Source: Nitrospirales bacterium (lineage in GTDB: Bacteria > Nitrospirota > Nitrospiria > Nitrospirales > UBA8639). Taken from it: a stretch of 64,000 bases of DNA. Shown piece by piece: positions 12,067 to 24,017 of this stretch. The notes beneath the pieces are model-generated. The model was not told the DNA's origin and made no database searches. It saw only the letters and a list, made by a program, of their open reading frames with translations. The position numbers were made by a program, and so were the translations under genes. Position 1 is the stretch's first letter. The number at the start of each line of letters is the position of its first letter. The DNA lies in contig JAJDBP010000007.1 of NCBI GenBank assembly GCA_029261295.1, positions 124,001 through 188,000 on the forward strand, written 5' to 3'.

Positions 12067-15000
12067 ATGAGTAATACTTCAAGCGATCGCCAACCTAATC
12101 GTCTCATACACGAAACCAGTCCCTACCTCTTGCAGCATGCCCACAATCCGGTGGATTGGTTTCCATGGGGAGAGGACGCCCTCAAGCAAGCCAAAGAGCA
12201 CAACAAACCCATACTCTTGTCGGTGGGCTATTCTGCCTGCCACTGGTGCCACGTCATGGAGCGGGAATCATTTGAAAATGATTCCATTGCTGAATTGATG
12301 AATCGGTATTTCATCAATATCAAAGTGGACCGTGAAGAACGACCCGATATCGATGAAATTTACATGCAAGCCACAACGGCGATGAACCAGGGACATGGCG
12401 GATGGCCAATGACCGTCTTTCTGACTCCGGATCAAGAACCAATTTTTGCCGGAACATATTTCCCCCCTACCGATAAATGGGGAAGACCCGGCTTTGGGTC
12501 CATTGTGACAAACATTGGGGAAGCATGGACCAAGGACCAAGCGAATATTGTCCAACAAGCTGGAAAATTCACGTCGCGTCTCCGCACTGCGCTTCAACCC
12601 GCTTCCCCATTGGCGGTCGGTGAAGCAGATATAGAGAGCGCGGTCAAACAGTTTGCCCACGATTTCGATGCCCGGTACGGTGGCTTTGGCCGCGCGCCAA
12701 AATTTCCGCCAGCTACGGGCCTGTCTTTCTTGCTTCGCCAATATCACTGGAGTCGCCAGGAAAAAATCCTCACCATGGTCACGAAGACGTTAGATGGCAT
12801 GGCCGCCGGTGGCATGTATGATCACATCGGGGGAGGCTTTGCTCGCTATTCCACTGACGATGAATGGTTGGTCCCACACTTTGAAAAAATGTTGTACGAC
12901 AATGCTCTTCTTGCCCGCACGTACGTCGAAGCCTTTCAGCTCACTGGGCTAGAACGCTACCGCCAAGTGGCCACGGAAACCTTGGATTATATTCTCCGAG
13001 AAATGACGGCCCCGGAAGGCGGGTTCTATTCTGCAACGGATGCCGACAGTGAAGGGGTAGAAGGCAAGTTTTTCGTGTGGACACCAGAGCAGATTCAAGA
13101 GATCGTCTCTAATGAAGAAGACGCCAAAAGATTTTGCGCCTATTATGACATTACTGAAGAAGGAAACTGGGACCAGACCAGCATTCCTCGCACACAGAAA
13201 TCCCTCGAAGCGGTTGCTCAAGAATTAGGATGCTCCACCGCAGAACTGAAAAGTACCATTGATCGGGTTCGCCCTTTAGTCTACCAAGCCCGCCTAAAGC
13301 GCATTCCACCTGGATTGGATGACAAAATCATTACGGCCTGGAACGGCATGATGATTGGCACGATGGCTGAAGCCGGGCGCGTCTTCAACCATCAACCCTA
13401 TCTTGATAGCGCGGTCCGAGCCGCAGACTTTCTCCTCACCACACTTTCCAGACCAGAGAATCATTTATGGCGGACCTACCGTAACGGGAAGGCCCATCTT
13501 AATGGGTGCCTTGAAGATTACGCCTACGCATCAGAAGCAATGTTAGAGGTATACGAAGCAACGGGCATTGAACGATACCTCCATGAATCTGTCGCATTAG
13601 GTGAGAGGCTTATAAGAGATTTTGAGGACCGGGAACATGGAGGGTTCTTTACGACCGCGGTAGACCATGAAACTCTCATTCTTCGAGGACGAGAAGGTGC
13701 CGATGGTGCCACACCGAGTGGCAATGGCGTAGCCGCATCCGTTCTTGCACGCTTGTCATTTCATTTTGACCGAGAAGATTTTCGTACAGCAGCCACCAAT
13801 GCTGTCCGGGCCTATGGACAACAAATTGGGCAAGTTCCAAGAGGCTTTCCCAAAAGCCTGATGGTTGTCGATCTGTTACTTCGAGGGCCCATCGAATTGG
13901 CCCTCGTTGGCAGCAACGATCAAAAGTCCTACGCACAACTCCAAATGGCCGTGAATAGTTGTTTCATTCCCTATCGTATCATGGCCTACCGGCAGGACTC
14001 AGAGGTGGAAACAGCACATCCTCTCTTGACTGGTAAGACAACTGTGGATGGAAAGCCCGCCCTATACATCTGTAAAAATTTTGCGTGCCAAGCGCCCATC
14101 ATTGACCCAGAAGCCGTACCATCAGCACTACAGCATCCTGAAGGGCCAACAACGCAAGCTGAAGGAATACGGCAGGCCCTCACCACAGACGGCCTACCTG
14201 GTCATGCCACGCCACAGGGCACCGGAACCTATGTGGCCAATATCTTGGCAAGTGCTCGAACGACACGCCCATCTTCACACGGCTATACCACATTAGGATC
14301 GACAGGATTAACAACATCCCGAATCGGCTTCGGAGGCTATCGTATTAGTCTGGGAGTAGACGACCATCGAAACGCACTCGAAAAAGCCGTCCAGGAAGGG
14401 TGCAATCTTATCGACACGTCAACGAACTATGCCGATGGGCAAAGTGAGCGATTGGTCGGAACCGTCATCAAAGACCTTATAGCCAAACGATTTATTACTC
14501 GAGAAGAAATTATCGTTGTCTCAAAAATCGGCTACGTCCAAGGGAATAATCTGACGCGTGCCGAATCCAGAGAACAAGCCGGGAAACCATTTTCTGAAAT
14601 GGTGAAATACGGAGACGGCATTTGGCATTGCCTCCATCCTGATTTTTTGGAAGAGCAACTCACCATGTCTCTGGACCGGTTAGGTCTAGCAACAATGGAT
14701 GTCTGTCTCCTCCATAATCCTGAATATTTTCTATCAGATGCTAAGAGTCGAAACCTGTCCATCAACGCCATACAATTACAAGATCTACGGCAGGAATTCT
14801 ATCGTCGATTAGAGCAGGCTTTTTCCTACTTCGAGGCACAGGTCACTGCAGGGCGAATACAATTTTATGGCGTATCCTCAAATACCTGTACGGCCAAACC
14901 GGACAATCCTGAAGCCACGTCTCTCTCACAGATGCTCAAAGCCGCTCAAGCGGCGGCGAAACAAACCGGCAGGACAGCACATCATTTTCGAGTTTTGCAA

Positions 15001-15774
15001 CTGCCGATGAACCTCTTTGAAGCCGGTGCCCTCTTGACTCAGAACACGGGAAATGAAAATTCAGAGACAGCCTTGTCACTCGCTCGTGAAAAAGAGATCG
15101 CCGTGCTAGTCAATCGCCCGCTGAATGCCATCCCAGGCAAAGGTGGCGGGATGATTCGCCTGGCCGACCCACAAGCCGAAATCTCCAACACTAACTTTGA
15201 AGCCCAAAAGCCTAAAGTAGCGGCACTCGAGAATGACTACAAACAAGTCCTTGGGCCAAACATTCCACAACCAGATAAAGGCGCGTCGCCTCTGGATTAC
15301 TTCAACTGGGCCGAGGAACTCACACGCGTACGAACATCTGTCCAAAACTTAGAGCATTGGGACCAAATCGAATCACAAACGATTGCGCCACATGTGAATC
15401 GGGTATTCCAACTACTTACTCAGCATTTCACTGGCCGAAAAGAAGAAGAGCAAATTTGGCAATCTTGGCGAGATAAATATGTACCTGAACTGGTCGCCCT
15501 CTTAAAAGTCATGCGAATGGAAGCGGCACACAAAAGCGCGAAAAAACTCTCTGCAATAAAAGATCTGATTGATCCCTTACTGCCAGAAGACAAACACCAA
15601 GAATCCTTTTCCAAAAAATCTCTCTGGACAGTGGCCAGCACCCCGGGCGTCACCAGCGTTCTCAATGGCATGAGGCATACAGTCTATGTCGACGACTCCC
15701 TCACTATTCTCCAATGGGAACCACTCCCACACTCTCGTCCAGTATTTGAAGCTCTTATCGACACACCTCAATAA
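12067..15774 (+). CDS. DUF255 thioredoxin-like/six-hairpin protein fused to an aldo/keto reductase
   Basis: A 1235-residue two-part protein. Residues 1-735 match the YyaL/SPATA20 family: a thioredoxin-like domain with CHWC (Cys58-Cys61), then [25 protein letters not shown] and a long alpha/alpha-barrel part resembling sugar epimerases. From about residue 740 a second domain begins [18 protein letters not shown], a textbook start of an aldo/keto reductase. Its catalytic tetrad is complete: Asp783, Tyr788, Lys820 and His883. The frame is uninterrupted across the junction, so this is one gene, not two. YyaL-type proteins have no settled activity, and the reductase substrate is unknown. No strong ribosome site precedes the ATG. 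There is no signal peptide, so it is probably cytoplasmic. Confidence 0.92.
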
Positions 15775-16032: not shown

Positions 16033-19000
16033 TTAAGATTTCTGCTCGCTACTTGTTCCATCTTCTTGCGAAAGACTTTCACGTAAGGATTTCAGTCCTA
16101 CACCAAGTTGTTCTCGAATTTTGGGTGTGGCTTGAGTGGCCACCATTGATTCAAAGAACCGGATGTTGGCAATAACAGAATCCATTTGCCTGGCTGAACC
16201 TCCCTGACGTTTGGCATCACGATATCCTTTCGCAATTTCCTTCTTATCGCTAACTGTCATCTTCTGGGCATAGAGTGAATCGAGGAGTTTCTGATCTGGA
16301 GTCAGGACCATATCCCAGAATGTTTGCCCCTTTCCCTTCAAATCCTTTGCCTTAATGGCTAATTCGGTTAGGCCCTGTGCAATCAAATCAGTACCATTCT
16401 TTTTCCCTCGTTGTGATGCGCGACCTTTCGGCGGCCCCCAAGAAAGGACAATCTCCGCTGCCAACCGATTCCCCAAGGGATAATAGACATCGTTTCGCTT
16501 TGTGTCCTTGCCAATTCGATAGCCCTCACCATAGCAATCTTGCATTTTCCCTAGGGCATTCCGCTGCTGTGCCTTATTCTTAAGGAGCATGGCTTTCCCT
16601 TTATACAGTTTACCTTTCAGAGAAAACCGCTCTTGCGTTTCTTGAATTTGGAGAAGGCCCGAAAGAATATTCTCCGCATCGTCAAACAGATCCTTGATCG
16701 GAAATTCCTTTTCGATCCCGTCAGGCTTCTTCTCGCCTTTCTCTTTCTGCATTTCTACGCGATCGAGCGCCCACCGAACCTTGAGATTGGCTAATTGTTC
16801 CAGCGACTCGACCGTCGAATCGGCCGGGTGCAAAGTTTTTCCCTGATCATAGAATCGGACGGCTTCCACAAAGAGACCCACTTCCCCATATGCTCTCCCT
16901 AATGCCGCACACATAGACGCGGAATCAGTCCAGTCTGCGCCCATGCCTTTTGTAAGATTGATGAGGTAGTTCCGTAGACGTTGCGTCTTTTCTTCGGAGG
17001 CGAATTTGGCCTTTTGAGTAATATTTTCCAATTCTTTCTTCAGCTCTGCCGAAGCCACAGGGCCTTCATCAGACGTTCCCCTTACGTACGATGGCTGTTT
17101 TGTCATGGCGAAATCCGGGTCTCCATAACATTGATACGCCCCCCATGTATTTGCACCAGGATGATTATTGAAGGTCTCTTCTCGGGCTAGCCGCACGGCA
17201 TCCCCAAACGTGCGTTGGGCGAACATGGTTTCATAAAAAACCTTGGCAAAGGTCTTCGCCGCCGCATCATCCACTGCCCATCCCGCAGCAACGACAGCCC
17301 GCACGCCCATTCGAATGAGTTGCGTAGCCAGATTGGACGCCAATCGGTGAAAAGCCACATCCTTTTGTTCTTTTTCACCCCTCGTGCTCCCGAGATAGCA
17401 ACAATTAATAAACACCAGCTCCGGGACAAAGCGCATTTGTTGAATTTCAGCCGGTGTGAGAAACATCCCATCGCCCAAAACCATTCCCGTCACTAATTTC
17501 TGATCTTCGGGCAACTCTGACCCAGGGAATGGAGTATTCGACTCAGCGCCTTTGGACTCAAGAGGAAATTCGAACACCCCATGGGCAGCTAGATGGACTA
17601 GCTTATAGGGTCGACTGTAGAGCGCCGTCAGAATAGCTTGGGGCGTAGCATCTTTCTCCACCAATTCCACTGTGCCATGGTAGCCACGCTCACGCAGAAA
17701 TTTTGCCACGTCTCTTGCTTCAGACGCCGCTCCGGGTAGTGGGGCAAATGTTCCAGTTGGTTCGTTATAGGTTGGATCTCCCACAACCAACGCATTGAAC
17801 TCAGTACCATGATAGACATTTTCACGAAACTCTGTGGTGGCCAATTGGCGAATCATCCCCGCCGTCACCGACAGCGGCTTTGATTCTTGGTCCAGGCGAT
17901 CATGCAGTAACTCCCAGGGATAGGCCGCCGAACCATCATCCAGAACCAGAGCTAAGTTGCGGTGATCGGTGGCGTATTCTTTCAAACGATTGGGAATAAT
18001 CAGCTCAAACAGGGTGCCGGATAATTCAGGATCGTTGGCGGTCGAGGCTACGGCACGATTTAAAAAACCCTCGACGAGCCGACGCTGAGTGGGTTGTAAA
18101 TATGTTTCGGCTCGTGCTCGATCAGTGAGAGTTTCAAATTTCAAGGCTCCATGCTCTTGCGTAATCCGCATCCGCTGCCACCATCCTGGGGACTCATCAT
18201 AGGATACCCGTGACAATCCTTCCTGCCCTTTTACCAGTAACTCTTTGAGAAGGAGCCCATCACGGAATTCTGCTGAATGTCCCAGTTGCAGTAACCGTTT
18301 CATCGCCTGAATTGCTAGATCTTCCCACAATTCGACAATCTCGACCGAATCAATTCTGGCGGTCAGAGGTCCCTGATGTTCGGACCCATCGCCACTCGTC
18401 TGCTCATCTGATTCTTTCTGAAATCCTGCGAATCGATTATTTGCGGAGAGGATGCCACGAAGAATGGCTTGTAAGGAATCAACAATCGTCAATCCCGCAC
18501 CTCCAGTCCCGACCAACAAACTCGTCAGAGAAAGAGACAAGGTAGTGGGACCAGAATGATATTCTCTGTCTCTATGGCATCGTTCACGCTCTTGTTCTAA
18601 ACACCGCAACATATACCGAGTGACCCCATGAGCCACCGTTTCGGATAACGATCCAGGCGTCAGATCACCAACCATTCCCAATCCAACAATAACCGCGCCA
18701 GGATACTTCGCTCCAGCAGCAACGCCATGTTCATTGAGAAAGATCGCACATGTGTTGAGTTTATTGGGATAGATATGAAGAGCATGCCGTTCTCGAAGAC
18801 GCCCATTGAGTTTCCAATCGATCGCCGCTTCTGCGCTCACAATGGTGTCGCCTTCATAATGCCCCACAAGGACAGGGGAAGTTGCGCGGTTCAGATTCCC
18901 ATGAATGATGCTCACTTGAATTTTTTTCGCAGATTCCACAGAAGCCCGTTCTGTTGTCGACCCTAAAGCTGAGGCAATGAGATCGGTTTCATTGGGATAT

Positions 19001-21612
19001 CGGGAGGGTCGTGCATCAGGCCATTCAAATGTCGTGGCCACCAGGCCGCGCCTCTGGGGAGGAGTTTGCCGTAATTTCGTGGTCTTTCCCCTAATCAACA
19101 AATCAAGCAACCCATCAAAACTTTCCGGCATATTGGCTAAATCCCCATGCTCACAATCGAGATAGTACGCTTGGGATTTCAGTTCTGCCGGAATACCGGT
19201 ATCCCACGGTACACGGCCATCCCCAAAAGGCGTGGCATCGACTTTGATCTGACGCCCTTGAGGCGCGTCTTTATCAATCCTGATATTGCACGGTGTCGCC
19301 TGGGCCGCGCCAGCTACATAAATCATTCGCTGCGGATCAATGGGGCTGCCTTGCAACAAATCACGAATGGTACGGGCTTCCATTAATTTGGCCACCTTTG
19401 GCAAAGGCCATGGGATCTCTGCAGAATGATCCATTTCTGTGTTGGCAGAGCCGCCCCCACGGGACTCCTCCACATCAAATCGACGGAGTAATTTCCACGA
19501 CTCTTCCCCATAGACATCTAAAGAACCTGTATGCGGCAACAATTGCAATACGCCATCAAAACAGGAAATGATCTCCAGCAATTCTTCTTGCGAATGCTTA
19601 AAATCAAGCAGGGCAAGTTTTCGCACTAACGGATCACGCCCCATGAGCATGGCTATGATGGCATGGGAACCTTGATTGGGTGTTCCAAGCATAATCAGAC
19701 GGGTTCCCGGATGCCGACACATCTCCTGCCACACGACTTGGCCCTCTTGTGTGGCCAGCATAGTCCGGACAATTAACCCTCCCATGGAATGCGCAATGAT
19801 TCGAATAGGGTGTTGCGCTGATGGGATGCGTTTTAAAGTTTTTTCTAAATCTTTTCGCAATTCATCCGCGAGCTTTAAGAGAGACTTTCTCCAATCATAG
19901 CCATAGGGAACCACTTCATGGGATGCGGCCAAAAATCTGATCAGGTCCTTATACCCTTTGCCAATGGGGCCATCCTGCTCTACATCCTTCGCTTGCGTTC
20001 TCAGCTTTTTAAGACCGCCTGTCGCGAGATCCAACATCTGCAACCAGACCCGGTCCTTCCCCACCTTGAGATGGCTGCCCATAATTCCAGGCAGCACATA
20101 CACGATAGACTGTTGCGTCTCCACGGACCGTGTTCGGTAGTCATCCGAGGTAATCTCATGAGACGCCTTTTCCAATACATGAAAATCCTTTTGCCCTTCC
20201 TTGTTGGTGAGAGCGCGGACTAACCGAGTGGCCGTTTCCGGATTCTTGAAATAGTGAAAATGGTCAACATTTCCACCTGTATCAATCCAATACTGAATCT
20301 TCTGTGTACGATCGGTCCCTCCCAACATGGCTAAAGTGTCCACAACCAAATCATGGTCACCTGGATAAAACCAATCCGCCAGTGTTTTGATTTTCCCTAA
20401 AACGCCCTCTCCTGCCACATCTCCCCCCAACACATGTAAATCAGCCTCGGTCCTAACACCGGGTCGATTTAATAGTCGAACCAAAGGCGAACCGGGCATT
20501 TGGGCTTCCAACCCAGGTAAGTCCTCTGGATCTGTTCTTTTCTTAACCACGGCGGCTAACAGCGCAGAGAGACCTTCAAATACAGGGTTATGCGAAAATC
20601 CTGGAACCTGTTCGAGAACATTCAACATGATCGAGACATATCGATCCAATCGTCCACTAGCTAATGTCGTACCAGCAGCCGGGCAGCCCACTCGGATAAA
20701 TCGCTCAATATGAAAGGAGTTCTTTTGAAGAATGCGATCTAACTGCTGTAAAGCTTTGAGGTCGCCACTTCTGTTTTGTTCAGAAAAAAGCTCTTCGTCC
20801 TCCTCCTCAAATGGCTTCCGATCCTTCACCATGCTGCGACAGAGCAATTCCCCAACAAGTCCCCCACGGGAATGGGACACCACATGAAGACGAGCATCAT
20901 GAGGCAGGATCTTCTCCAACTGCTGTGCGAGTTCCAATGTATTGACGATCGGACTCTCGGTAAGAGTCTTATGTTGAAACGCCAACACATGATTCGGAAA
21001 CTGTTCGAGCAATTGCTCCATGGGAGACTTCGCTTCAGAGACCGTCGAACTCCCTTCCCACAGTCCTCCAAAACTCCCGTCGGTGGATGAAGCCGTGCCA
21101 TGCAAAAAGAGCAAAACATCTCTCGTATCTTTGAGCCGACCCTTTGGTTTTTGATAATCCTTCCGACCCTTGGCTCCCCACAGGTACAGACCGGGGCCAG
21201 GATCAAGACGCCCCTCCACCTTGTCTCCCACAAAATCCGTGACGGTGCCTGCCACATCAATACCAAACACCTTCAACCCTTTAATCACCCATTCCCCGGC
21301 CCACCCCCTACTAGCCTGGGCAATAGGAAGCGCATGGGGAATTTCAACGCCCTGATGAGATTCGCCTCGAGAGGTCTTGGCCCCATAGTCCTTCTCGAAA
21401 TCTTCTCCCCGAAGCCATATTTTCAATCCGTTCTCAAGCTCAACCTGAACAAGATCATCGTCAGCCACGTCAATCGACTGCACGGCCCCTTCTGCACGGG
21501 ATCGATCTAATGTCGCGCTGTGTTTTTGCGTGAGGAACCCTGGTAACGCCTTGGCGGTTTCCGTGGCTTTTGAAGTTTGATCAAGCTCTCCATGAAAGAT
21601 AAATTTGCTCAT
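16033..21612 (-). CDS. CHAT protease fused to two alpha/beta-hydrolase domains and a TPR-like tail
   Basis: A 1859-residue multidomain protein without a signal peptide. Residues 1-100 are of unknown fold. Hydrolase 1 (about 160-470) has LLFLHGTAS and the nucleophile Ser248 in SHSRG. Hydrolase 2 (about 500-830) resembles LCAT/PGAP1 lipases: VYVLPGIMGSHL, Ser609 in AHSMG, an FGDGRVPW acid loop and the His-bearing CEHGDL. Residues 890-1060 are an unassigned alpha/beta region (VIVGLGMVGDLTPGSL). Residues 1210-1510 are a CHAT caspase-like protease: ALVVGDPTY, His1344 in HLAAHG and Cys1405 in FINCCYLG, then VVAAGWAVDD and CYGDPDF. The tail is helical and TPR-like (about 1520-1750). An AAAGGA site precedes the ATG. 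It lies 119 bases after the muramidase gene, same strand, probable operon. Confidence 0.88.
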   Translation of the reverse strand: MSKFIFHGELDQTSKATETAKALPGFLTQKHSATLDRSRAEGAVQSIDVADDDLVQVELENGLKIWLRGEDFEKDYGAKTSRGESHQGVEIPHALPIAQASRGWAGEWVIKGLKVFGIDVAGTVTDFVGDKVEGRLDPGPGLYLWGAKGRKDYQKPKGRLKDTRDVLLFLHGTASSTDGSFGGLWEGSSTVSEAKSPMEQLLEQFPNHVLAFQHKTLTESPIVNTLELAQQLEKILPHDARLHVVSHSRGGLVGELLCRSMVKDRKPFEEEDEELFSEQNRSGDLKALQQLDRILQKNSFHIERFIRVGCPAAGTTLASGRLDRYVSIMLNVLEQVPGFSHNPVFEGLSALLAAVVKKRTDPEDLPGLEAQMPGSPLVRLLNRPGVRTEADLHVLGGDVAGEGVLGKIKTLADWFYPGDHDLVVDTLAMLGGTDRTQKIQYWIDTGGNVDHFHYFKNPETATRLVRALTNKEGQKDFHVLEKASHEITSDDYRTRSVETQQSIVYVLPGIMGSHLKVGKDRVWLQMLDLATGGLKKLRTQAKDVEQDGPIGKGYKDLIRFLAASHEVVPYGYDWRKSLLKLADELRKDLEKTLKRIPSAQHPIRIIAHSMGGLIVRTMLATQEGQVVWQEMCRHPGTRLIMLGTPNQGSHAIIAMLMGRDPLVRKLALLDFKHSQEELLEIISCFDGVLQLLPHTGSLDVYGEESWKLLRRFDVEESRGGGSANTEMDHSAEIPWPLPKVAKLMEARTIRDLLQGSPIDPQRMIYVAGAAQATPCNIRIDKDAPQGRQIKVDATPFGDGRVPWDTGIPAELKSQAYYLDCEHGDLANMPESFDGLLDLLIRGKTTKLRQTPPQRRGLVATTFEWPDARPSRYPNETDLIASALGSTTERASVESAKKIQVSIIHGNLNRATSPVLVGHYEGDTIVSAEAAIDWKLNGRLRERHALHIYPNKLNTCAIFLNEHGVAAGAKYPGAVIVGLGMVGDLTPGSLSETVAHGVTRYMLRCLEQERERCHRDREYHSGPTTLSLSLTSLLVGTGGAGLTIVDSLQAILRGILSANNRFAGFQKESDEQTSGDGSEHQGPLTARIDSVEIVELWEDLAIQAMKRLLQLGHSAEFRDGLLLKELLVKGQEGLSRVSYDESPGWWQRMRITQEHGALKFETLTDRARAETYLQPTQRRLVEGFLNRAVASTANDPELSGTLFELIIPNRLKEYATDHRNLALVLDDGSAAYPWELLHDRLDQESKPLSVTAGMIRQLATTEFRENVYHGTEFNALVVGDPTYNEPTGTFAPLPGAASEARDVAKFLRERGYHGTVELVEKDATPQAILTALYSRPYKLVHLAAHGVFEFPLESKGAESNTPFPGSELPEDQKLVTGMVLGDGMFLTPAEIQQMRFVPELVFINCCYLGSTRGEKEQKDVAFHRLASNLATQLIRMGVRAVVAAGWAVDDAAAKTFAKVFYETMFAQRTFGDAVRLAREETFNNHPGANTWGAYQCYGDPDFAMTKQPSYVRGTSDEGPVASAELKKELENITQKAKFASEEKTQRLRNYLINLTKGMGADWTDSASMCAALGRAYGEVGLFVEAVRFYDQGKTLHPADSTVESLEQLANLKVRWALDRVEMQKEKGEKKPDGIEKEFPIKDLFDDAENILSGLLQIQETQERFSLKGKLYKGKAMLLKNKAQQRNALGKMQDCYGEGYRIGKDTKRNDVYYPLGNRLAAEIVLSWGPPKGRASQRGKKNGTDLIAQGLTELAIKAKDLKGKGQTFWDMVLTPDQKLLDSLYAQKMTVSDKKEIAKGYRDAKRQGGSARQMDSVIANIRFFESMVATQATPKIREQLGVGLKSLRESLSQEDGTSSEQKS

Positions 21613-21731
21613 GGCTATCCTTTCAATCAGAAAAAACTTTAGATCATTTCATGTACTTCGTATGATTCCAAAATCGTCAAAAGTTCTTCGATGGATTTTG
21701 GGCATCTACAACACCCCAGGCTCCATCTGGA

Positions 21732-22718
21732 TTAAAAAACTTCTTGCAATGTTTGGAATTCACGGAACCATCGAGCTAGGGTTTCATCATAATGATGTTT
21801 AGCATACCCAGGTCCATTATAGAATTTGGCAAGTTCGGCGAAATGTTCTTTCGTAGGATTTTTTCGAGATACAATATGCGATTTTTTTGACAGAAACCGC
21901 GCAACAAATACCACCTGCTCTGCAATAGAACTCTGAAACATCGAAACGGCAGATTTCGCCCCAACCCGTTTGTAGTTCGCGCCTAAAATTTGTCCCAACC
22001 CTTGGCTCATAGCCTGGTAACGAAGCTCAATGAGGTTAGCTCCACCTTGCTTGTTATTCAATCGCGTTAAAATATGCTGTTCAAATCGTGGGCGAACGAT
22101 GCCTCCAGTTTCTTGTTTAATAATCGCCAAGACCCATTCCGGCTGAATCTTCACATTTTTCTCCTCTTCTACCTGAACCACCGCAGCCTTCACCGCCCCT
22201 CCATACTTTGCCTTAATTTTCTGACAACTCAGCAATTGCCGCTGATCCAAGGCATTGAGATGAAATAAGGCATCCTGAAATGATCCACACAGCACTTGAT
22301 TCTGACTGATCGCGTCCTTAGCCTTTCGCAACATGGCTTCCATGGTCTTTAGAGTCAATTTCGTATCTGGAATCTTGACAATATTGGCCTTGGCAGTTCG
22401 CCATGTGCAGGGATAGCACAAGGTCTTCCGAGTTAGATGTGGGTTGAGCCCATGATCAAACTCAAACTGGGCCACCGCACGATTCGTTCCACGCCCAAAA
22501 TCACCATCAATAGCAAAAGCCCCAGTGGAAGATGTCGAATATCCAAGAAAGACAAGCATCCGTTGAACAGCTTTTATCGCATCCTCCCCAACTGACTGCC
22601 TGGTGATCCCGCGCTCACCTTTCTTAAACTGGGTGAGAACTCTTCGCCAACTTTGGGTTCTATCCCCAATAGGGGTTAACACCTGAGAAATTTTCTGATC
22701 TTCCAGTATTTGCTTCAT
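21732..22718 (-). CDS. Peptidoglycan-binding N-acetylmuramidase without signal peptide
   Basis: Predicted cell-wall hydrolase of 328 residues. Residues about 45-95 are a PG_binding_1-like domain (VQRMLVFLGYS, then AIDGDFGRGTNRAVAQFE). Residues about 150-325 match the DUF3380 N-acetylmuramidase family: the likely catalytic Glu203 in KQETGG, then FEQHIL, SQGLGQILGANYK and AKFYNGPGYAKHHYD. The loop after Glu203 is shorter than in most relatives. With no signal peptide it cannot reach peptidoglycan by Sec, so it would need lysis, a holin or a contractile injection machine. The ribosome site AGGAGG precedes the ATG. It is the first gene of the unit that includes the CHAT protein. A phage endolysin is the alternative, but no phage genes surround it. 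Confidence 0.88.
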   Translation of the reverse strand: MKQILEDQKISQVLTPIGDRTQSWRRVLTQFKKGERGITRQSVGEDAIKAVQRMLVFLGYSTSSTGAFAIDGDFGRGTNRAVAQFEFDHGLNPHLTRKTLCYPCTWRTAKANIVKIPDTKLTLKTMEAMLRKAKDAISQNQVLCGSFQDALFHLNALDQRQLLSCQKIKAKYGGAVKAAVVQVEEEKNVKIQPEWVLAIIKQETGGIVRPRFEQHILTRLNNKQGGANLIELRYQAMSQGLGQILGANYKRVGAKSAVSMFQSSIAEQVVFVARFLSKKSHIVSRKNPTKEHFAELAKFYNGPGYAKHHYDETLARWFREFQTLQEVF

Positions 22719-23108: not shown

Positions 23109-24017
23109 ATGTCCTCAATTTCTAATATCCTGAACCAGTTCCCTGACTTTCAACAACTTTCTTCCCACACCCCGTTCGCACTAAAAACCCAGCAATTCCA
23201 AGCTCACGCGCAAACATCTACGACCTCTAATTTCAGTTTCACTACGTCAGAAGGAGATCGGGTTTCCCTGTCAAGTGGCTCAGAGAGCCAATTCTCCTTT
23301 GAATCTTATAATTTTCAAGGGTTGGTAGATGGGCAGACAGTAGATTTTCGCAGCCAACAATTAAGTACGTCGACTCGCTCAGATTTCAGCCTGTTCATTG
23401 AAGGCGATCTGAATGAACAAGAGCTGTCTGATATTCAGGCGTTCATCCAATCGTCTCAGAACCTTTTACAAGATATTGCGACAGGAAATATGGAGAACGC
23501 GAAGGAAACGGGCCTCTCATTAGGTGAGCTTGATTCTCTTTCGAGTGCCGCCCTCTTTTACCGTCAGGAAACGACCGTCTCGCTCGCAGTTCGTTCGACC
23601 CTCTTGGCTAGTCAAGTAAAGGAAGCTTCACACGAACCCGGGCGAAAAGGATTCAATGACGGGCAGAGTCATAAAATTGAAAACCTTTTTGACAAGATTC
23701 GCAAGGCACAAGAACAATTTCAGATTGAACCAGACAAATTGGCTAAACGATTACCAAAACTTCTCACCAAGCTCATTGAAACCTTGGAAAGTCTGTCGCC
23801 TAAGGAAGACTCCCCACAATCACTTTTCGATCAAGTCCGAAAAGAATTGTTCCCATCGCTTCTTCAAGCCACACAAAATCTCACTACTGACGAGAAGACC
23901 CCAGAGGAAGTCACTAAAGAAACCAATAATCAGGAGGGAGGAAATTCAGTTCCTCCACCAATACAACAGAACAGCGATATCCTGGCTAACCTTCTGAGTA
24001 AATCAACAGAAATCTGA
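23109..24017 (+). CDS. Hypothetical protein, Ser/Gln-rich N-terminus
   Basis: I do not recognise this 302-residue protein. The first 95 residues are rich in Ser, Thr, Gln and Phe, without signal peptide or membrane segments. A core follows with DFSLFIEGDLNEQELSDIQ (about 96-115), then helical, charged segments (IENLFDKIRKAQEQF, LPKLLTKLIETLESL) and a Pro/Gln/Asn-rich tail. The layout is like secreted or surface-associated accessory proteins, but I cannot name a family with confidence. GGGG lies 10 bases upstream of the ATG. It is isolated: both neighbours are on the opposite strand. Confidence 0.75.
   Translation: MSSISNILNQFPDFQQLSSHTPFALKTQQFQAHAQTSTTSNFSFTTSEGDRVSLSSGSESQFSFESYNFQGLVDGQTVDFRSQQLSTSTRSDFSLFIEGDLNEQELSDIQAFIQSSQNLLQDIATGNMENAKETGLSLGELDSLSSAALFYRQETTVSLAVRSTLLASQVKEASHEPGRKGFNDGQSHKIENLFDKIRKAQEQFQIEPDKLAKRLPKLLTKLIETLESLSPKEDSPQSLFDQVRKELFPSLLQATQNLTTDEKTPEEVTKETNNQEGGNSVPPPIQQNSDILANLLSKSTEI

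What the first reader, a model, noticed from the sequence alone, without database searches (positions are those of the whole stretch)
16033..22718. CHAT protease fused to two lipase-like domains, in one unit with an unsecreted muramidase
Seen: one 1859-residue frame with serine nucleophiles Ser248 and Ser609 in two alpha/beta-hydrolase domains, a CHAT His1344/Cys1405 pair and a TPR-like tail, 119 bases after a muramidase gene on the same strand. Known: CHAT caspase-like proteases act in bacterial conflict and immune systems; DUF3380 muramidases act as endolysins or injected toxins. Inference: a module attacking lipids, proteins and cell wall, perhaps an abortive-immunity or injected effector system. 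I know of no described system with this exact combination.
Basis: partly seen in the sequence, partly recalled or inferred. Interest (0 to 1): 0.85.

Follow-up and report, generated by a model that had tools for sequence, protein, structure and literature searches.

The report
Caspase-like protease with two lipases
The huge protein is real and is probably a self-destruct effector of a bacterial immune system, joining a caspase-like protease to two fat-cutting enzymes; the cell-wall enzyme beside it is mostly a neighbour by chance of location, not a conserved partner.

Summary
In detail: an intact 1859-aa frame (16033-21612, minus strand) carries two complete alpha/beta-hydrolase domains, a CHAT protease and a TPR tail, 119 bases after a 328-aa leaderless muramidase gene. 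Ser248, Ser609, His1344 and Cys1405 are conserved in the full-length relatives aligned, in Nitrospirota-type genomes and Bacteroidota.

The "one unit" reading fails. Of 21 genus genomes, 11 have the CHAT protein and 4 the muramidase; the two are adjacent only here and in one other. Two genus-mates carry the muramidase at this site without CHAT (a decayed toxin-antitoxin-like relic lies there instead); three others have neither.

Across 32 loci of the family, 22 have TIR, nSTAND1 (NLR-like), FGS-lectin, DUF4062, SLOG-SLATT or patatin genes within 5 kb; in one genus-mate the gene directly follows a diversity-generating retroelement with an nSTAND1-FGS sensor. It most likely works as a cytosolic death effector of NLR/TIR-type conflict systems: a sensor trips the CHAT protease and the LCAT/phospholipase-like hydrolases. 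In this genome the sensor is lost or encoded elsewhere. No type VI secretion sheath gene was found; an injected-effector role is unsupported. New variant of a known kind.

The parts
16033..21612 (-). 1859-aa protein DUF7379 hydrolase - LCAT-like hydrolase - M17_N-like - CHAT - TPR-S
20203..21225 (-). hydrolase domain 1 (about aa 130-470): HGT oxyanion 171-173, Ser248, Asp421, His451
   Evidence: Pfam DUF7379; invariant residues
19063..20115 (-). hydrolase domain 2 (about aa 500-850): PGIMGS 508-513, Ser609, Asp798, His822; LCAT / lysosomal phospholipase A2-like
   Evidence: Pfam LCAT; Foldseek best hits for the N-terminal model
18283..19005 (-). Peptidase_M17_N-like (macro-type fold by analogy) domain, about aa 870-1110
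   Evidence: Pfam PF02789 in 2 of 6 relatives, best E 0.0011, not in the window protein itself
17119..18024 (-). CHAT protease domain aa 1197-1498, His1344 and Cys1405
   Evidence: Pfam, conservation, SAVED-CHAT fold match
16462..16869 (-). TPR-S domain aa 1582-1717 within a helical tail to the C terminus
   Evidence: Pfam PF20308 32.4 bits, over its cut-off; 5 of 6 relatives
21613..21731 (-). 119-base spacer with ribosome-binding-like AAAGGA before the CHAT gene
   Evidence: promoter and terminator counts at shuffle level
21732..22718 (-). muramidase (PG_binding_1 + PF11860), leaderless; neighbour, not a conserved part

Best explanation
The 1859-aa protein is a cytosolic, multi-enzyme effector of NLR/TIR-type bacterial conflict (abortive-infection) systems. 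Shown: its architecture, intact catalytic residues across phyla, and its recurrent neighbourhood with TIR, nSTAND1, FGS, DUF4062, SLOG-SLATT and patatin genes. Inferred: an infection sensor (nSTAND1-FGS, in some relatives diversified by a retroelement) or a TIR-made NAD-derived messenger is read by the TPR tail and perhaps the M17_N-like domain; this switches on the CHAT protease, which releases or acts together with the two acyl hydrolases, so that proteins and membrane lipids are attacked and the infected cell stops or dies. In this genome the gene sits in a variable chromosomal site behind a resident muramidase gene, without an adjacent sensor; the sensor is either lost or elsewhere (the genome has 3 nSTAND1 and 14 TIR matches over cut-off). 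The muramidase is an independent gene whose presence here is incidental.
For: Domains; conserved catalytic sets; purifying selection; 22 of 32 loci with immune-type genes within 5 kb (with Pfam confirmation for key neighbours), against about 0.07 TIR or nSTAND1 genes expected per such stretch from this genome's own counts; TIR genes 4 and 44 bases either side in G414; nSTAND1 and TIR 88 and 61 bases either side in a Flammeovirgaceae MAG; retroelement RT, template repeat and nSTAND1-FGS directly upstream in G002; type I restriction genes beside the Azotobacter plasmid copy; SAVED-CHAT and LCAT/PLA2 fold matches. Literature: alpha/beta-hydrolase and caspase genes pair in conflict systems (PMC7159879); nSTAND1-FGE sensors diversified by retroelements (PMC10907252); a TIR messenger activates a caspase-like protease in type IV Thoeris (as cited in PMC12847820).
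Against: No activity, expression or phage test. In this genome no sensor is adjacent. Ten of 32 loci, this one included, show no such neighbour. Several of the 22 are genus-mates with one shared synteny, so they are not independent. The domain profiles were built partly from some of these same loci. PADLOC knows no such protein. AlphaFold models are of low confidence (mean pLDDT 55-57), and the M17_N call is weak.
Confidence: 0.66

Rival explanations
1. The muramidase and the CHAT-lipase protein form one functional module in this lineage: on activation the CHAT protease and hydrolases damage the membrane and the cytosolic muramidase reaches and cuts the wall, giving lysis.
For: Same strand, 119 and 38 bases apart in two genomes, G000 and G006. 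The two CHAT copies are only 60% identical while the muramidases are 84%, so adjacency was kept or gained twice. A PG_binding-CHAP protein lies 87 bases after the Terrimonas homologue. The muramidase is leaderless with Glu203 kept.
Against: Muramidase without CHAT at the same site in G011 and G013, with a decayed toxin-antitoxin-like relic in its place; neither gene in G009, G005 and G007; 8 CHAT-bearing genus genomes lack the muramidase (some drafts incomplete). A single origin of the G000/G006 CHAT pair is not excluded (AU p 0.18), so two gains are not shown.
Confidence: 0.13
2. A secreted or injected antibacterial effector pair (T6SS, eCIS or similar).
For: PF11860 and PG_binding domains occur in endolysins and injected effectors; weak match of the PG_binding domain to an effector structure (E 0.07).
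Against: No VipB and one weak sheath hit on another contig; no leader, no injection-type neighbour seen; homologues sit with intracellular sensors.
Confidence: 0.05
3. A housekeeping or stress-regulated CHAT hydrolase, with immune-looking neighbours only because variable genes cluster in islands.
For: Ten of 32 loci lack immune neighbours; this copy sits between resident genes.
Against: Patchy distribution (17 of 396 phylum genomes at E 1e-60); close same-strand spacing to TIR/nSTAND1 genes in unrelated lineages; plasmid carriage.
Confidence: 0.13

Closest known systems
alpha/beta-hydrolase + caspase pairs of MoxR-vWA (VMAP) ternary conflict systems (PMC7159879)
   Same: A caspase-superfamily peptidase and an alpha/beta hydrolase that operate together in an NTPase-regulated conflict system
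   Different: Here both are fused in one chain with a second hydrolase, and the partners are nSTAND1/TIR/FGS proteins; no MoxR-vWA pair was seen among the neighbours annotated
nSTAND1-FGE(CLec) systems diversified by retroelements (PMC10907252)
   Same: nSTAND1-FGS sensor, RT and template repeat beside the homologue in G002
   Different: There the effectors are reached through EAD8/trypsin or are fused; a free-standing hydrolase-CHAT effector was not found in the passages read
Type IV Thoeris (TIR messenger activating a caspase-like protease; as cited in PMC12847820)
   Same: TIR genes beside a caspase-superfamily protease in many relatives
   Different: Much larger multi-enzyme effector; messenger and activation not tested
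SAVED-CHAT and TPR-CHAT (Csx29) proteases of type III CRISPR
   Same: CHAT fold (best Foldseek hit 8tl0); TPR and CHAT in one chain
   Different: No SAVED domain matched; the TPR lies C-terminal and is of TPR-S type; no CRISPR link seen
LCAT / lysosomal phospholipase A2
   Same: Fold and Ser-Asp-His order of hydrolase 2
   Different: Cytosolic, fused, 12-16% identity
PF11860 phage endolysins (7rum, 7q4s)
   Same: Muramidase domain of the neighbour gene
   Different: Chromosomal, in a conserved synteny block without phage genes

Membership tests
CHAT proteases (PF12770) | CHAT profile over cut-off with His and Cys dyad | tested here: met
   117 bits against cut-off 24; His1344 and Cys1405 conserved
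CHAT proteases (PF12770) | proteolytic activity | not testable with these tools
   needs purified protein
alpha/beta-hydrolase lipases | Ser-Asp-His triad and oxyanion loop in both domains | tested here: met
   Invariant S248/D421/H451 and S609/D798/H822 over two phyla; PLA2/LCAT fold hits; geometry not measured
TPR-S sensors (PF20308) | profile over curated cut-off | tested here: met
   32.4 bits against 27.6
TPR-S sensors (PF20308) | binding of an NAD-derived messenger | not testable with these tools
   prediction recalled from the domain's authors; paper not held
nSTAND1/TIR conflict systems | sensor gene in the same neighbourhood | tested here: inconclusive
   Met in relatives (22 of 32 loci); not met at the window locus itself
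Type IV Thoeris | operon of TIR gene and caspase-like effector | tested here: not met
   No TIR gene adjacent in the window; so not filed as Thoeris
CRISPR SAVED-CHAT / Csx29 | SAVED domain or type III CRISPR neighbours | tested here: not met
   No SAVED match in the protein; no CRISPR gene among the neighbours annotated
MoxR-vWA ternary systems | MoxR ATPase and vWA protein nearby | tested here: not met
   Absent from the neighbours annotated
T6SS/eCIS effector | contractile injection machinery in the genome or beside the gene | tested here: not met
   one weak sheath hit elsewhere not followed
Prophage lysis module | phage genes around the muramidase | tested here: not met
   Conserved synteny between the DsbH-like gene and comEC in genus-mates; no viral contig match

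The most novel reading that the evidence does not exclude
A three-target suicide machine: the CHAT protease activates its own two phospholipase-like domains and a recruited cytosolic muramidase, so one trigger destroys proteins, membrane and wall; cell-wall enzymes would then be recurrent exchangeable partners of this effector family (muramidase here and in G006, PG_binding-CHAP in Terrimonas).
Probability: 0.1. Interest if true: 0.78.

Novelty: new variant of a known kind. Interest (0 to 1): 0.5.

Why it matters
A single chain joining a caspase-like protease to two lipase-type enzymes, kept intact over several phyla and on plasmids and placed beside NLR-like, TIR and retroelement-diversified sensors, would be an unusually direct bacterial parallel to inflammasome-style death, in which protease activation leads to membrane destruction. 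It gives a defined effector with testable catalytic residues for sensor systems (nSTAND1-FGS with retroelements) whose outputs are untested.

Tried and rejected
One conserved muramidase-CHAT operon: rejected by genus-wide comparison. CHAT relic in the muramidase-only genomes: none found; the gap holds a decayed toxin-antitoxin-like gene pair, read by eye. Prophage origin: no viral contig relatives, phage tblastn only 34-36% over the muramidase domain. T6SS/eCIS. PADLOC and NCBIfam found no family for the CHAT protein. PDB sequence search with the CHAT protein: nothing. Papers on TPR-S: none held. Operon promoter/terminator scan uninformative, at shuffle level. Two independent gains of CHAT beside the muramidase: suggested by the tree (97/97) but the AU test does not exclude one origin. 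The notebook says 23 of 32 immune loci; a recount gives 22.

Full report
Observation. The 1859-aa frame and the 328-aa frame are present as described, on the minus strand, 119 bases apart. Pfam finds DUF7379, LCAT, CHAT and TPR-S in the large protein and PG_binding_1 plus PF11860 muramidase in the small one. NCBIfam and PADLOC have no family for the large protein. A further domain, Peptidase_M17_N-like, lies at about 870-1110 (best E 0.0011 in relatives; not above threshold in the window protein).

Family. Full-length homologues occur in 7 genus-mates at 57-62% identity, in fragments in others, in another genus of the family (G028, contig-truncated), at 38-44% in other genomes of the phylum and at 31-35% in Bacteroidota and on plasmids of Paracoccus, Ensifer and Azotobacter. 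Close pairs show dN/dS of about 0.15-0.18, so the protein is kept by selection. The genome is probably a Nitrospirales bacterium; this rests on memory of the length of one relative's contig (4,317,083 bases, as in Nitrospira defluvii), not on a test.

Is it a unit with the muramidase? No. In the genus (21 genomes) CHAT is found in 11, the muramidase in 4, both adjacent in G000 and G006 only. The interval between the DsbH-like/aldo-keto reductase gene and comEC is a variable site: neither gene in G009, G005 and G007; muramidase alone in G011 and G013, whose gap carries a decayed toxin-antitoxin-like pair and no CHAT relic; CHAT and muramidase in G000; nSTAND1-FGS, CHAT and muramidase in G006; two other genes in the remaining clade. 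In most other genomes the CHAT gene lies beside an outer-membrane efflux operon, with a TIR gene downstream. The muramidases of G000 and G006 are 84% identical, the CHAT proteins 60%; the tree separates the two CHAT copies (97/97), but the AU test does not reject their being sisters (p 0.18).

What company does the CHAT protein keep? With domain profiles checked against Pfam for the main neighbours, 22 of 32 loci carry TIR, nSTAND1, FGS, DUF4062, SLOG-SLATT or patatin genes within 5 kb, nearly all on the same strand. The sharpest cases: TIR genes 4 and 44 bases either side in G414, one of them TIR-NACHT-TPR; nSTAND1-TPR 88 bases before and TIR 61 bases after in a Flammeovirgaceae MAG; TIR-FGS 20 bases after in G041; a caspase (C14) gene about 70 bases before in G179; two TIR-nSTAND1-WD40 genes flanking the Rhizobium plasmid copy. 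In G002 the gene follows a diversity-generating retroelement: an nSTAND1-FGS sensor with a variable repeat, an Avd-like small gene, a reverse transcriptase (read in two overlapping frames) and a template repeat in which 23 of 40 differences fall on its adenines (36 of 118 bases are A). G018 and G017 keep RT and/or template-repeat remnants upstream. From this genome's own 14 TIR and 3 nSTAND1 matches, about 0.07 such genes would be expected in a stretch of that length; related loci are not independent, so this is a rough yardstick.

Mechanism. The Foldseek best matches are the SAVED-CHAT protease filament for the C-terminal half and lysosomal phospholipase A2/LCAT for the N-terminal half, on models of low mean confidence. 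Together with the published pairing of alpha/beta hydrolases with caspases in conflict systems (PMC7159879), retroelement-diversified nSTAND1-FGE sensors (PMC10907252) and TIR-activated caspase-like immunity (cited in PMC12847820), the best reading is a death effector with three active sites, held off until a sensor or TIR messenger acts through the C-terminal TPR-S region. The messenger step is inference; the TPR-S link to NAD-derived signals is recalled from the domain's authors and could not be read here.

The window copy itself. It has no adjacent sensor. The nearest immune-type genes are a TIR-WD40, TIR-TPR, metallo-hydrolase and CHAT cluster to the left of the window (G000 C35, about 110-119 kb). 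TIR-DUF4062 plus nSTAND1 pairs lie on contigs C26 and C2. The window protein may be an orphan effector or may be served in trans.

Verdict. A real, intact, widely shared effector architecture that I did not find described as such in the papers I could search; a new variant of a known kind. The muramidase link, which made the finding look unique, is local. A faint hint that wall enzymes recur (Terrimonas PG_binding-CHAP) keeps the triple-attack idea alive at low probability.

Noticed in passing
L040 13408-18193 (G002): Diversity-generating retroelement with nSTAND1-FGS target, Avd-like gene, RT split over two frames and template repeat, directly upstream of the CHAT-hydrolase homologue.
   Followed up: partly
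L037 5566-14132 (left of the window, G000 C35 about 110-119 kb): Cluster of TIR-WD40, TIR-TPR, metallo-beta-lactamase-fold and a second CHAT protein (666 aa).
   Followed up: partly
window 12067-15774: 1235-aa fusion of a DsbH/YyaL-type thioredoxin protein with an aldo/keto reductase domain, conserved across the genus; only a 134-aa piece remains beside the insertion in G006.
   Followed up: no
L043 6028-7187 and L044 4303-5388: Decayed VapBC-like pair (read by eye) occupying the site where CHAT lies in the window.
   Followed up: partly
L027 15466-18300 (Hymenobacter): SLOG-SLATT protein after the CHAT homologue whose C-terminal third looks by eye like a peptidoglycan-binding plus L,D-transpeptidase-like region; Pfam did not call it.
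   Followed up: no
L125-L130: Shorter relatives (about 1000 aa) with M17_N-like and CHAT but no hydrolases; several have a same-length 278-aa gene just upstream, which in L124 is a caspase (C14).
   Followed up: partly
L082 5676-8960 and L083 5693-8938 (Paracoccus plasmids): About 1090-aa protein of almost no known family in a two-gene operon with the CHAT homologue; a candidate sensor.
   Followed up: no
window 23109-24017: 302-aa protein without any Pfam match, fast-evolving (57-63%) in an otherwise conserved block.
   Followed up: no
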